A stretch of DNA of 57,031 nucleotides, taken from contig CASGAD010000013.1 of the NCBI GenBank assembly GCA_949299335.1, positions 1 through 57,031 of the forward strand, in the 5' to 3' direction. Made by a program: the position numbers and the translations under genes. The stretch is from an uncultured bacterium. Its GTDB lineage: Bacteria; Bacillota_I; Bacilli_A; RFN20; CAG-826. Shown one piece after another: positions 36,665 to 41,498 of the stretch (positions within the stretch are counted from its first letter, which is position 1; each line of letters begins with the position of its first letter). The notes beneath the pieces were generated by a model, which ran no database searches, had not been told where the DNA came from, and saw only the letters and a program-made list of their open reading frames with translations.

Positions 36665-37996
36665 ATGAAAGAATTGCTTCACGTAAAATGCGTTGATTTT
36701 ACTTTTGATGGACAAGGGCTTTGTAAAGCTGGATCAAGAGTTATTTTTGTTCCGTCATTATTAATTGATGAAGAAGCAGATGTAGAAGTTTTATATCATA
36801 AAAAGGACTTTGATGTAGGTAAAATAGTTAAAATTACTAAATTTTCTGACTATAGAATTAAGCCTAAATGTTCTTGTGCGACTAGTTGTGGAGGATGTTC
36901 CTTTCAAAATTTAGAATATTCTAAAGAACTAGAATATAAAAAGAATAGAGCTCTTCAAACTATAAATAAAATTGGTGGATTTAATTTTAAAGATGCTCCT
37001 GTTTTTGGTATGGAAGAGCCTTATTATTATCGAAATAAAATTCAAGTTCCCTTTGGCTACGATAAGCAAAAACGACTTGTTTATGGATTTTATAAATTTA
37101 AGAGTCATGACATTGTTCCTATTGAAGAATGTGCAATAGAATCTAAAGAACATGTAGACATTTTAAAAACTATAAAGAAATTAATGCTATCAATGAAAAT
37201 TGAAGCATATAACGAAGACACATTTAAAGGTGATATACGCCATGTCTTAATTAGGGTAGGCAAAGTTAGTAAAGAAGTGATGGTTGTTTTTGTTGTTAAA
37301 AATTCTAGATTTAAGTCAAGAAATAATTTTATCAAAGCTTTAATTAAAGAGTGTAATAATATAACAACTGTCGTAATTAACGAAAATCCTCGCAAAACCA
37401 ATGTTATTTTAGGAGAAAAAGAAGAAGTTGCTTATGGCCCAGGTTTTATTTATGATTATTTACTAGGTGTAAAATTTAAAATCTCATCTAAGTCTTTTTA
37501 TCAAGTAAATCATGATCAATGCGAAAAATTATATTCTTTAGCTATTGAAGGAGCATCACTTAAGCCAACTGATACTATTTTAGATGCCTATTGCGGAATA
37601 GGCACAATTGGACTAATTGCTTCAAAAAAAGTAAAAGAAGTTTATGGAGTAGAAATAGTTAAAGAAGCTATTATAGATGCTAAAAATAATGCCAAACTAA
37701 ATAACATTAATAACTGTCATTATGAATGTCAGGATGCAAGCGATTACGTAGTTGAAAATAAATTTGATTGTGTTTTTGTCGATCCACCTAGAAAAGGTTT
37801 AGATGCTAATTTTGTTAATGGCTTATTAAAGAGCAAACCTGAAAGAATTGTTTATATTTCTTGTGATGTTGGTACATTAAGTAGAGACCTTTCTATACTT
37901 AAAAAAGAATACAATATTACTGGCGTGAAGTTTGTTGATATGTTCCCTAGAACGTATCATATTGAGACAGTTTGCTGTTTAGTGCTTAGAAAATAA
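36665..37996 (+). CDS. rlmD: 23S rRNA (uracil-C5)-methyltransferase, RlmD/RlmCD type
   Basis: TrmA/RlmD-family enzymes methylate a uridine of 23S rRNA with S-adenosylmethionine. The 443-residue protein has an N-terminal TRAM domain (about 1-60), an iron-sulphur motif CSCATSCGGCSFQNLEY, the SAM site LDAYCGIGTIGL, DPPRKGLD and the catalytic cysteine region YISCDVGTLSRDL. In Firmicutes one RlmCD often modifies both U747 and U1939, so the exact target is uncertain. It lacks its own ribosome site and is probably coupled to the gene before. Confidence 0.88.
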   Translation: MKELLHVKCVDFTFDGQGLCKAGSRVIFVPSLLIDEEADVEVLYHKKDFDVGKIVKITKFSDYRIKPKCSCATSCGGCSFQNLEYSKELEYKKNRALQTINKIGGFNFKDAPVFGMEEPYYYRNKIQVPFGYDKQKRLVYGFYKFKSHDIVPIEECAIESKEHVDILKTIKKLMLSMKIEAYNEDTFKGDIRHVLIRVGKVSKEVMVVFVVKNSRFKSRNNFIKALIKECNNITTVVINENPRKTNVILGEKEEVAYGPGFIYDYLLGVKFKISSKSFYQVNHDQCEKLYSLAIEGASLKPTDTILDAYCGIGTIGLIASKKVKEVYGVEIVKEAIIDAKNNAKLNNINNCHYECQDASDYVVENKFDCVFVDPPRKGLDANFVNGLLKSKPERIVYISCDVGTLSRDLSILKKEYNITGVKFVDMFPRTYHIETVCCLVLRK

Positions 37997-38156
37997 TTTA
38001 AATATTATTTTATTTACTAGTAATTTTTATTTGCTTTATTTGTTTGTTATCAAGAATTAGTCTGTAAATTTGCAGCATTTTATAGCAAAGAGTCAATAAA
38101 ATTTTAATAATTGAATTAACTGCATTAAATAAGCAACAGCAATTTTTAAAAAATAA

Positions 38157-38272
38157 ATATGCGAAATATTGCCTGATATTTCTTCTTTAAGAGTTGAACA
38201 TATTTTAGGCAGGATTTTAAAGAATCAAAAAATCTAAAATAAGCGAGGGCAAAAATACAAGGTATTATAGAA
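38157..38272 (+). pseudogene. Possible remnant of a winged-helix C-terminal domain
   Basis: The 460-base gap 37997-38457 has no intact gene. From 38157 one frame reads ICEILPDISSLRVEHILGR then ILKNQKI and a stop. A neighbouring frame then reads SEGKNTRYYRK and two stops (ending about 38272). Together they resemble the winged-helix end of Fic-type or similar proteins ('..LPDiS..TverxLxxLvxxgkI..iG.gxxTrYxxk') after a frameshift. The rest of the gap shows only short broken frames in both strands. Confidence 0.3.
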
Positions 38273-38382
38273 AATAATAATTAGGCTAATAAAGATGCAG
38301 CTTAATAAGCAAAATATGAAACAAACTAAGCTTTACTAATTGTGAAGTCGATAGACTATTTAAAAGAGACTGTGTCAGTTGT

Positions 38383-38412
38383 TTGTGATAGTTTATAAAA
38401 AATAAGTATAAT
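38383..38412 (+). promoter_or_regulatory. Promoter of the small unknown gene at 38458
   Basis: -35 TTGTGA (38383-38388), an 18-base spacer and -10 TATAAT (38407-38412), 45 bases before the ATG. Confidence 0.5.
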
Positions 38413-38457
38413 GAATTCATATATCTTTTAGGCAAAATTAAATAAGAGGATTTATAT

Positions 38458-38952
38458 ATGACAAAGAACGAAGCTTTATATTTTTTAGAATGTTTGGCAA
38501 AAGGACTTAATCCATTTAACGGAGAAAAGTTAGAGAACGAATCCATTTTTAATGATGTTAATATGGTTAGAGCTCTTTATGAAATAAGAAATTTCATGGA
38601 TTATGAAATTAAAAATAAAAAAACTAAAAAAGAACCTTTTACCCTTTTAAGAAAAGAAGGAATAGTAGACGGGCCAATGAATATTTCAACTTTTGTTAAG
38701 AAAATAAACGAGGTTAATTCTGGAACAAAAATGAAGAAATTTAATAGAAAAGTATTGATTAATTGGCTCATTCAAAATGATTACCTTTTCCTAGAAAATG
38801 GTAAAAAGCGTATCACAAATAAAGGTAAGAATTCTGGTATATATGTTTTACATAGAGTAAGTAATAATGGAAAAGCATATGATGTGATAACTTATCCTGA
38901 AAAATTTTTAAATTATATACTTGAATTAATTGGTTCAGGAAAGATCGTGTAG
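38458..38952 (+). CDS. Unknown protein with NPFNGE and TxKG..GI motifs
   Basis: The 164-residue protein is not assigned to a function. The N-terminus LECLAKGLNPFNGEKL..ESIFNDVNMVRALYEIRNFM has a pattern seen at the start or inside several bacterial helicase-associated and phage-type small proteins. The C-terminal LINWLIQNDYL..GKKRITNKGKNSGIY resembles a small winged-helix-like module. GAGG lies before the ATG and a promoter is at 38383-38412. It lies among damaged defence-type genes, so a role in defence or a mobile element is possible but unproven. Confidence 0.6.
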   Translation: MTKNEALYFLECLAKGLNPFNGEKLENESIFNDVNMVRALYEIRNFMDYEIKNKKTKKEPFTLLRKEGIVDGPMNISTFVKKINEVNSGTKMKKFNRKVLINWLIQNDYLFLENGKKRITNKGKNSGIYVLHRVSNNGKAYDVITYPEKFLNYILELIGSGKIV

Positions 38953-39091
38953 ATTAAATTACTTTTCGCTATTTATAAAAAGTATTTTATCGATGACGAT
39001 TTATTATCGAAGATACAAAAGCATTCGTAAAAATAAAATATGAAAAAATATTAAGCGCTAAGATTGTTGTATTATAAAAAGATATAAAGTT

Positions 39092-39124
39092 ATTTACCCG
39101 GCATTTACCCGGCATTTACCCGGC
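39092..39124 (+). repeat. Three perfect 11-bp tandem repeats
   Basis: ATTTACCCGGC is present three times head to tail (39092-39102, 39103-39113, 39114-39124). Its CCCGGC core is strikingly GC-rich for this genome. It lies just before the AlbA/Schlafen-type gene. The unit is not a multiple of three. Confidence 0.9.
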
Positions 39125-39132
39125 AAAATTGC

Positions 39133-40453
39133 TTGAATTTAGGCAGAGAAAACGAAAAAAATAGAATTCAAAGAGTCAACTTCTGAATTTGATAAAGCAT
39201 GTAAAGCTATAGTAGGGATACTTAATAGAGGTGATGAAGGTATCATCTATTTTGGGGTGAAAGATAACGGGGATGTAATTGGGCAAATTGTTGGGAAAGA
39301 CACTCTTTCTACTTTGACAGATAGAATTAGAAATTCTATTAGACCTTCCATATATCCAACTGTGAAAAAAGAAGAATATGATGGCAAAACAATAATATCT
39401 GTGTCATTTAAAGGAACAAATAAACCTTATGCATATAAGGGGGCTTTTTATATACGAGTAGAAGATCAAACACTTCCTATTGATCCATTAGTATTAAGAA
39501 AATTAATACAAGAAGGAAATGAGTATAACACTAAATGGGAAAATGAGTTGACCAATTATGGCATTGAAGATGTTGATGAAAACGCTTTAGAAAATTTTTA
39601 TAAGCAATCTGTAGCAATCGGGAGAATCGTAGAACATAAACATACTTCAGAAGAACTTTTAACACAATTAAATTTAATGGTTGATAAAAAATTAACAAAT
39701 GCAGGCTATTTTTTATTTTCAAATAAATCACCTTTAGTTTTAAAGGCAGCGATTTATCCTACTGAAGAACGACTAAATCCTATCTATTTAAAAAGATACG
39801 AAGGAAATATTTTTAACTTAATACACGAAGCGATAAATTATATTAATCAAAAAATGAGTTGGAAGGTTGTAGTTGACAATGTGGAGAGAAAAGAAATTCC
39901 AGAGGTTCCTGTAGTCGCACTTAGAGAAATAATAATTAATTCTTTTGTTCATTGTGACTATATTAGCGATACAGAACATCAAATAACATTCGACCCTTCA
40001 AAAATAGAAATTTATAATCCAGGAGTATTTAAAGACTATACCCCGATAGATTATGTAAACGGTACAATTCCTTCAAGAACAAAACACAAAGTAATACAAG
40101 GGATCCTTTTTAAAGCTTTTGATATTGAAACTTTAGGAAGAGGATTAAAGAGAATGGACAAATTTTGTAAAGAATCAAATGTTAAGTGGGACTATAAAAA
40201 ATATCCATTTGGCTTTACTTTTATATTTCTAAGAAATAATCTTGGTGAAGATGAAGATTCATTGTCATCTGATGCTAAAAAAATACTTGAATACATGTAT
40301 AAAAATGATGGAATTTTAGAAAGTAATGCGAAAGCATGTGAAGTTCTTAATAAAAAAGAGTGTTCTGCTCGTAAGATTATTAATGAATTAGATATGTCTG
40401 AAAAAATCAAAAGAGAAGGGACAGATAAAGTCGGATTTTGGAAACTCGTTTAA
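39133..40453 (+). CDS. AlbA_2/Schlafen-type ATP-binding protein with a disrupted 5' end
   Basis: The protein has an N-terminal AlbA_2 (Schlafen-like) domain: IEFKESTSEFDKACKAIVG, GIIYFGVKDNGDVIGQ, AFYIRVEDQTLPID. A C-terminal HATPase_c_4 domain follows (VVALREIIINSFVHCDY, YNPGVF, ETLGRGLKRM) and then a winged helix. From 39143 on the frame is open but has no ATG. The first usual start codon is GTG 39257, which would cut off the conserved N-terminus. A TTG at 39133 reads LNLGRENEK in another frame and would join the main frame if one A of the A7 run 39155-39161 were absent. So it is either frameshifted, phase-variable or a start-lost pseudogene. Such proteins are common in defence regions. Confidence 0.65.
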
Positions 40454-40671
40454 TTTAAATACAGTTTTTTGCTTTTCTAAACCACGTTTAGTTTCTTAGG
40501 GATATTTAAATAAGCAATTTCAAAGAGAAATTAACTAAAAATGTGCACACAAAAATTATTTTTGAATCTTAATAATAAAAACATATGTTGATATGCCACA
40601 ATCAATTTTATAAAGCAATACAAAAGGAAGAGTTTACTTTGTTTTATTTTTTACATTAATAAAGGTATTAA

Positions 40672-40887
40672 ACTAAATTTAGTGTACTTAAAAATAAACT
40701 TTTAGAGTCAAATAAAATCCCTGAAAATCTTGATTTTAATATCGGAATTTAAAAAATGTTAAGAGAGTAATTTGATGAAGTCGATTTTAATCAAGCGAAA
40801 AAAGACTCTAGAAAATTTATAATTAATAAAGAAAATTTAGATTTTTATTGTAAGGAATTGTTTATATATTATTTGAATAAACTTTAA
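40672..40887 (+). pseudogene. Remnant of an AbiEii-type nucleotidyltransferase toxin (C-terminus)
   Basis: The gap 40454-40994 has no intact gene. In one frame from 40672 the translation reads LLESNKIPENLDFNIGI, stop (40750), KMLRE, stop (40768), FDEVDFNQAKKDSRKF, then LDFYCKELFIYYLNKL and a stop at 40885. This matches the C-terminal pattern of AbiEii/AbiGii nucleotidyltransferases ('..FexvDfexakeDvrpFi....ldxWskexFlxli'). Two internal stops and the missing N-terminal nucleotidyltransferase core show decay. I see nothing else in 40454-40671. Confidence 0.5.
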
Positions 40888-40994
40888 ACAAGACTTATTC
40901 ATGAAAAATTGTGTTCTAAGATAAAAAAATCACTGAGTCATTTATAATTATTTCTTATAGATTATAATTAACTTAATTTAAAGGAGGTTTAGTT

Positions 40995-41498
40995 ACGAAA
41001 ATCAATATAGTTTATGCTAGTAGGACAGGTAATACAAAGTTAGTTGCTGAAGCTATTAAAGATGCTTTAAAAGACTTTGATATAGAAATATATAATTCAA
41101 CCAATGAAGTTAGAGATGGGGACATCTATTTTATAGGTTCATGGGCTGATAAAGGAAGTGAAACTATAGACATAATTAACTTTGTTAAATCATTAAAAAA
41201 CAAAAAAATTGCTATTTTTGGTACTGCTGGATTTGGTGGTAGTAAAGCTTATTTTGAAACTTTAGCTAATAGAGCATATTCCAATATTGACGAATCTAAT
41301 GAAAAATTAGGTCATTTTTATTGTCAAGGTAAAATGCCTATGAGCGTAAGAGAAAGATATGTAAAACTTATTCAAGAGAACCCTGAAGATAAGAAGCTCT
41401 TAGTTAGTATTAAAAATTTTGATGAAGCTTTATCTCATCCAGACAGTGATGATTTATTGCGTGCTAAAGAGTGGGCATTAAGTATAATTAAAAAATAA
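40995..41498 (+). CDS. Flavodoxin family protein with an apparent ACG start codon
   Basis: The frame encodes a complete 167-residue flavodoxin: KINIVYASRTGNTKLVAEAI with the FMN phosphate loop SRTGNT, then DIYFIGSWADKGS, IAIFGTAGFGG with the second FMN loop, and QGKMPMSVRERY. No ATG, GTG or TTG stands at the beginning. AAAGGAGG (40980-40987) lies seven bases before an ACG at 40995 that aligns with the family start. ACG is a rare start codon. The alternative is a recent ATG-to-ACG mutation. The SVRERY pattern recalls short flavodoxins such as BilS, but this is weak. A double TATAAT upstream could be the promoter. Confidence 0.75.
   Translation, partial: TKINIVYASRTGNTKLVAEAIKDALKDFDIEIYNSTNEVRDGDIYFIGSWADKGSETIDIINFVKSLKNKKIAIFGTAGFGGSKAYFETLANRAYSNIDESNEKLGHFYCQGKMPMSVRERYVKLIQENPEDKKLLVSIKNFDEALSHPDSDDLLRAKEWALSIIKK

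What the first reader, a model, noticed from the sequence alone, without database searches (positions are those of the whole stretch)
39092..39260. Three 11-bp tandem repeats and an A7 run before an AlbA/Schlafen-type gene without an ATG
ATTTACCCGGC is repeated three times and is followed by a frame (LNLGRENEK) that would join the conserved IEFKEST only if one A of A7 (39155-39161) were removed. The unit is 11 bases, so copy number changes would shift any frame starting upstream. This looks like a slippage switch for a defence-type gene, or an operator array plus a frameshift.
Basis: partly seen in the sequence, partly recalled or inferred. Interest (0 to 1): 0.6.

Follow-up and report, generated by a model that had tools for sequence, protein, structure and literature searches.

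The report
Schlafen-gene operator array, broken gene start
The three 11-letter repeats are probably the DNA docking array of a bacterial Schlafen-type gene whose start is damaged in this genome; related genes in several bacterial phyla carry such arrays in front, and nearly half of those carry a second copy at the gene's far end, a layout I found no description of.

Summary
The repeat and the frame break are real. ATTTACCCGGC x3 (39092-39124) is the strongest short tandem repeat in the window, and the exact unit occurs only here in its genome. The gene behind it encodes Schlafen AlbA_2 + ATPase-like domain + winged helix (wHTH). Here its start is broken: TTG where relatives have ATG, no Shine-Dalgarno, one base too many at A7. 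The 62%-identical homologue has ATG and no break, so a slippage switch is not supported. The repeats are best read as an operator array. Of 151 family genes, 106 have direct repeats (one or two helical turns apart) upstream, against 20 of 204 control genes; unit sequences differ between genes, even between paralogues in one genome. Unexpectedly, in about 24 of 54 dereplicated genes with an upstream array the same unit recurs at the 3' end: in the codons of the linker before the wHTH (either orientation, spacing a multiple of three) or just after the stop codon; none was found in 95 kb of surrounding DNA. I propose self-regulation by a wHTH protein bound to paired arrays 1.2-1.5 kb apart. Binding is inferred, not shown. 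The window's copy has only the upstream array.

The parts
39092..39124 (+). Array of three ATTTACCCGGC units, 11 bp each; proposed operator array
   Evidence: family comparison
39133..39186 (+). TTG and the short out-of-frame 5' fragment LNLGRENEK..., matching the N-terminus of relatives
39155..39161 (+). A7 run at which the frame breaks relative to relatives
39161..40453 (+). Open body of the Schlafen AlbA_2 / HATPase / wHTH gene (430 codons and stop)
39161..39481 (+). SLFN_AlbA_2 domain
39980..40180 (+). HATPase_c_4-like domain (below curated cut-off)
40232..40261 (+). Linker before the winged helix; carries the second array in many relatives, not here
40262..40450 (+). C-terminal winged helix, proposed reader of the array
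39257..39259 (+). GTG, first standard start in the open frame; would remove the N-terminal part of AlbA_2

Best explanation
The array is the operator of the gene behind it. The gene family encodes a Schlafen-type protein (AlbA_2, an ATPase-like domain, a C-terminal winged helix). I infer that the winged helix binds tandem 11-12-bp sites at its own promoter, in phase with the DNA helix, and represses it. In many members the same array is repeated 1.2-1.5 kb away at the 3' end of the gene, inside the codons of the linker before the winged helix or just after the stop codon; protein bound at both arrays could bridge them and loop or clamp the gene. Shown by computation: the arrays, their positions, their gene-specific sequence, the 3' copy, the near absence of copies elsewhere. 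Inferred: binding by the gene's own product, repression, looping. In this genome the gene keeps its upstream array and an open 430-codon body, but its 5' end is broken (TTG, no Shine-Dalgarno, frame break) and it has no 3' array, so it is probably a recently inactivated copy unless the assembly is wrong.
For: Upstream arrays: 106 of 151 family genes against 20 of 204 control ORF upstreams; in a shuffle-based test 85 of 141 against 8 of 120, spacing mostly 12, also 11 and 20-25. A -10-like element lies inside or within 12 nt of the array in 79 of 106, against 70 of 204 control spans. Same unit at the 3' end: of 54 dereplicated genes with an exact upstream pair, about 18 have it in the linker and 6 around or after the stop, with no hit in 94.9 kb of surrounding DNA; own linkers score 15 or more in 33%, against 3% for linkers of other genes and 0.3% for the rest of the own gene. 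All 44 linker arrays have a main spacing of 12, 21 or 24, although upstream arrays of the same genes may have 20, 22 or 23. Linker units are forward (GATAAG gives NDKI, GATACA NDTI, GATAGA NDRI) or reverse complement (GTGACA gives NVT, GGACA NVQ or NVH, GCCA NGT), so it is the DNA, not one peptide, that is kept. In 20 whole genomes tandem units lie almost only at such genes; in the window's genome only here. Paralogues in one genome differ in unit. The 62% homologue has near-identical 47-bp arrays before the gene and just after its stop, unit ATTTATTTTGC, 11 bp like the window's ATTTACCCGGC. The C-terminus is a winged helix. Unit similarity follows wHTH identity given the other domains, partial Mantel p = 0.03; other domains not significant.
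Against: No binding experiment exists in what I could read. The wHTH link is weak: p = 0.03 uncorrected, and the presumed recognition helix alone shows nothing (p = 0.46); L052 and L049 share the GATAAG unit with only 32% wHTH identity. About 30 of 54 dereplicated genes with an upstream array show no 3' array by the strict test, the window's among them. The window's array is 8 nt from the TTG, closer than in most relatives, and the promoter scan finds no good promoter before it. 10% of control upstreams also pass the lax array test.
Confidence: 0.7

Rival explanations
1. Slippage switch: changes in repeat number or A-run length turn the gene on and off.
For: Perfect tandem copies and a homopolymer at the frame break. 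One pair of near-identical family genes differs by a duplicated array block.
Against: Repeats not in a frame with a standard start; relatives have neither the A-run break nor repeats in frame upstream; copy number stable in most close pairs; A7 common in intact genes.
Confidence: 0.06
2. Assembly or base-calling error: the gene is intact in the organism and the extra A is a homopolymer error.
For: Open 430-codon body with codon-position GC of intact genes; extra base in a homopolymer; draft assembly in 37 contigs.
Against: Does not explain TTG in place of ATG or the missing Shine-Dalgarno; many other A7 runs in the window sit in intact ORFs.
Confidence: 0.2
3. Transcriptional slippage or programmed frameshifting at A7 makes a small amount of full-length protein from the TTG start.
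For: A7 at the joint; a weak start would fit a gene kept low. A few other members also lack a standard start codon (L063, L133, L166).
Against: No conserved slippery site in relatives; those other members differ by substitutions near the start rather than the A-run break; no Shine-Dalgarno.
Confidence: 0.1
4. The arrays are bound by a host protein (a nucleoid-type silencer or a shared regulator), not by the gene's own product.
For: Weak link between unit and wHTH.
Against: Units differ between paralogues in one genome and are nearly confined to their own gene.
Confidence: 0.15
5. The linker copies reflect selection on the linker peptide only, and the match to the upstream unit is incidental.
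For: Related genes share related linker peptides.
Against: Copies are forward or reverse complement and give different peptides; other genes have the copy after the stop codon, where nothing is translated; own linkers match far better than swapped ones.
Confidence: 0.06

Closest known systems
[quoted passage not shown]
   Same: Same domain order: AlbA_2, HATPase-like domain, C-terminal wHTH. A 41% relative in Mycoplasmopsis arginini lies between hsdS and hsdR.
   Different: The window copy is 5'-broken, has no recognised defence neighbours, and its activity is untested. The passages I read do not mention arrays; the preprint was not available.
RptR operator (PMC12255303): repressor of a defence island bound to three direct repeats at the -10 box
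   Same: Three short direct repeats at the promoter; autorepression of a defence locus.
   Different: RptR is a separate 9-kDa dimer on 9-bp imperfect repeats with a TAGCTA palindrome. Here units are 11-12 bp, differ from gene to gene, and are often repeated at the 3' end.
3lmm, DIP2311 of Corynebacterium diphtheriae (solved structure)
   Same: Best fold match (E 6.8e-22) and profile match (E 2.2e-12).
   Different: 16% identity; no function given in the entry.
SLFN13 and SAMD9 AlbA_2 domains
   Same: Weak fold matches. A conserved Glu-x4-Glu in the family has the spacing of SLFN13 E205/E210; correspondence not checked by structure.
   Different: Eukaryotic proteins, without this winged helix and array layout.
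Iteron or partition-site arrays and distant looping operators (from general knowledge, not tested)
   Same: Tandem 11-12-bp sites in helical phase; paired distant operators.
   Different: Here one array can be written inside the codons of an inter-domain linker.

Membership tests
Bacterial Schlafen (AlbA_2 + HATPase + wHTH) | SLFN_AlbA_2 domain | tested here: met
   PF04326, E 1.8e-19, residues 1-107
Bacterial Schlafen (AlbA_2 + HATPase + wHTH) | HATPase-like domain | tested here: inconclusive
   PF13749 at 21.1 bits, cut-off 26; weak fold matches to histidine kinases
Bacterial Schlafen (AlbA_2 + HATPase + wHTH) | C-terminal winged helix-turn-helix | tested here: met
   AlphaFold model residues 370-429; family profile matches MarR/Lrs14-type regulators
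Bacterial Schlafen (AlbA_2 + HATPase + wHTH) | Glu-x4-Glu of the putative RNase site in one frame | tested here: not met
   Nearly invariant in relatives; in the window the first Glu lies in the out-of-frame 5' fragment
Bacterial Schlafen (AlbA_2 + HATPase + wHTH) | anti-phage or RNase activity | not testable with these tools
   No assay data
Phase-variable contingency locus | repeat lies in a reading frame | tested here: not met
   No frame with a standard start crosses the repeats
Phase-variable contingency locus | repeat number varies among close relatives | tested here: inconclusive
   Fixed in most close pairs of family genes, one block duplication; no strains of this species available
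Programmed frameshift | slippery site and frame break conserved in relatives | tested here: not met
   Relatives read straight through
Autoregulatory operator array | tandem sites at the gene's own promoter, enriched over other genes | tested here: met
   For the family: 106/151 against 20/204; -10-like element in or near the array in 79/106. For the window itself no good promoter was found
Autoregulatory operator array | bound by the gene's own product | not testable with these tools
   Only indirect: sites nearly confined to the locus; unit tracks wHTH weakly

The most novel reading that the evidence does not exclude
Bacterial Schlafen genes carry a self-addressed pair of operator arrays, one at the promoter and one at the 3' end of the gene, often written into the codons of the linker before their own DNA-binding domain. 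Each gene and paralogue has its own diversified code, and the protein bridges the two ends of its gene to keep a dangerous effector silent until phage infection disturbs the complex.
Probability: 0.35. Interest if true: 0.8.

Novelty: new variant of a known kind. Interest (0 to 1): 0.6.

Why it matters
Bacterial Schlafens are newly recognised candidate anti-phage effectors, and how they are kept silent is not described in what I could read. The arrays give a ready-made hypothesis and dozens of natural protein-site pairs with different codes, which makes the control of these genes and the recognition code of their winged helix directly testable. An operator written into an inter-domain linker is also an unusual case of one stretch serving as coding and regulatory DNA at once.

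Tried and rejected
The exact 21-bp array pattern in IMG/VR and in 223 other genomes of the family: no match. A scan of genome contigs with the window protein alone found no relatives; an alignment of the whole family had no stretch conserved enough; a closer alignment worked. A first linker test with single 9-mers was too blunt (exact match in 27% own, 8% swapped, 5% rest of gene) and was replaced by longer ungapped matching and exact-pair tests. A conserved partner gene was sought among neighbours and none was found. Literature searches for arrays at AlbA_2 or Schlafen genes found nothing; the preprint on bacterial Schlafens is not in the library. PADLOC matches are partial overlaps with models of other systems and were not used to file the gene as a defence system. 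An RNA-level role of the repeats was considered and set aside: linker copies come in both orientations and many upstream arrays lie before or across the -10 element.

Full report
Observation. The finding is in the sequence as described. ATTTACCCGGC occurs three times without a mismatch at 39092-39124. It is the top-scoring tandem repeat of the window, and its 23-base self-match at lag 11 was not approached by 40 shuffles (maximum 15). In the whole genome the exact unit occurs only here; the other matches, with one mismatch, are at the level of the reversed-pattern control. The downstream gene is open from 39161 to 40453 (430 codons). TTG 39133 begins NLGRENEK in another frame, and the two do not join at A7.

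What the gene is. The open body matches SLFN_AlbA_2 (E 1.8e-19) and, below its cut-off, HATPase_c_4. An AlphaFold model from 29 homologues (mean pLDDT 89, pTM 0.58) has a C-terminal winged helix at 370-429 after a low-confidence linker at 361-365. The family profile matches MarR/Lrs14-type regulators there; the best solved relative is 3lmm. [quoted passage not shown] that paper cites a preprint on their anti-phage role.

The broken start. Of the family genes that could be scored, 152 have an ATG near the conserved N-terminus, 6 GTG and 1 TTG; only five loci have no standard start in frame: the window, L063 (ACG), L133, and L094 and L166, which show the same sequence. The closest relative, L163 (62% identity over 430 residues; same order, another family), begins ATG after GGAG and has no frame break. 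The window has TTG, no Shine-Dalgarno, the array only 8 nt before TTG, and an extra base in the A run. The body keeps the codon-position GC of intact genes (0.41/0.30/0.18 against 0.40/0.30/0.18), so the damage is recent, or partly an assembly error. Runs of seven or more A occur 23 times in 35.8 kb of intact ORFs, so A7 is not special.

The repeats are a family feature. The upstream DNA of relatives holds direct repeats of other sequences in the same style: GTGACATTTATA, GGGACATTTCTA, CCGACATTTATT, GATAAGATAAAT, GATACAATAAAT, AATGGTACTTTG and others. Against shuffles 85 of 141 genes are significant, compared with 8 of 120 upstreams of other ORFs on the same loci; lag 12 dominates. With an exact 8-base test the numbers are 106 of 151 against 20 of 204. 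A -10-like element lies in or within 12 nt of the array in 79 of 106, against 70 of 204 control spans. In many Lachnospiraceae a TATAAT-like element sits between two TGTCACTT copies about 21 bp apart. The named loci include Bacillota, Succinivibrio, Spirochaetales, Desulfovibrio and Pyramidobacter. Paralogues in one genome carry different units, for example in G032 and G194.

The same unit recurs at the 3' end of the gene. In the alignment the linker before the wHTH often reads NVTTNVTTNVT, NDKINDKINDKI or NDTTNDTTNDTI, and the codons of these stretches are the gene's own upstream unit, forward (NDKI, NDTI, NDRI) or reverse complement (NVT, NVQ/NVH, NGT). Among 52 genes dereplicated at 70% identity, 33% have a linker match of score 15 or more to their own upstream array, against 3% for linkers of other genes and 0.3% for the rest of their own gene (Mann-Whitney p = 5e-4 and 9e-7). 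Some swapped linkers share a unit class, which makes the first comparison conservative; the genes are related, so the p-values are indicative. In a strict exact-pair test 54 of 76 dereplicated genes have an upstream array. About 18 of these have the 3' array in the linker (17 scored there, plus L052, scored as body because its ORF runs longer) and 6 at or after the stop; none has a hit in 94.9 kb of more distant DNA. All 44 linker arrays, before dereplication, have a main spacing of 12, 21 or 24, multiples of three, while upstream arrays of the same genes can have 20, 22 or 23. L163 has two near-identical 47-bp arrays, one before the gene and one right after its stop; its unit ATTTATTTTGC has the length and outline (ATTTAnnnnGC) of the window's unit. 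Scans of 20 whole genomes found tandem units almost only at these genes, with a few exceptions. The window's gene has no 3' array.

How it most likely works. Shown: arrays at promoters, gene-specific units, the 3' copy, near confinement to the locus. Inferred: the wHTH of the protein reads the array, represses its own promoter, and in genes with two arrays bridges 1.2-1.5 kb. Support for the wHTH as reader is modest: the partial Mantel correlation of unit similarity with wHTH identity, given the other domains, is 0.13 (p = 0.03); other domains are not significant, and the presumed recognition helix alone shows nothing. Neighbouring genes are diverse, in line with a self-contained gene. One relative in Mycoplasmopsis arginini lies between hsdS and hsdR.

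Slippage. Copy number is the same in most pairs of family genes that are 95-99% identical; one pair differs by a duplicated block. The repeats are not in a frame with a standard start, and the A-run break was not seen in the relatives compared. A slippage switch is therefore unlikely, though reads and strains of this species could not be examined.

Accessory locus. In the sister species G100, whose gene at the position of the window's 36665-37996 is 91% identical, the DNA after that gene shows no similarity to the window's, and the neighbouring flavodoxin has no match in 25 congeners. The Schlafen gene lies in a variable part of the genome.

Novelty. Operator arrays and looping between distant operators are known kinds (general knowledge; RptR, PMC12255303, is a defence-island example). 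I found no description of arrays at Schlafen/AlbA_2 genes, of a second array written into linker codons, or of such diversification from gene to gene, in the open-access library. Most subscription papers and all bioRxiv preprints are outside it, so this is absence in what I could read.

Noticed in passing
40995-41498: Flavodoxin_3 gene has ACG where ATG is expected, right after an AGGAGG; a second gene of this stretch without a normal start. No match in 25 congeners.
   Followed up: partly
38458-38952: 164-aa ORF before the array without a Pfam match, in the same variable region.
   Followed up: no
L063, L133, L094/L166: Other family genes with an open body but no standard start codon near the conserved N-terminus; L166 has six array copies.
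   Followed up: partly
L021, L043, L045 (genome G032); L011, L041, L061 (genome G194): Paralogous Schlafen-type genes in one genome carry different array units, as if to avoid cross-talk.
   Followed up: partly
L070 and L071: 98% identical genes, but the array block is duplicated in L070: array length can change.
   Followed up: no
G103:C4:26737-26768: An extra GATAAG-type array about 4 kb from its gene, a possible second target.
   Followed up: no
L161 (Mycoplasmopsis arginini plasmid 3): Schlafen-type gene with a linker array between hsdS and hsdR of a type I restriction system, with a recombinase gene nearby.
   Followed up: partly
38000-41000: DNA after the gene at 36665-37996 shows no similarity in the sister species G100: a variable locus.
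   Followed up: partly
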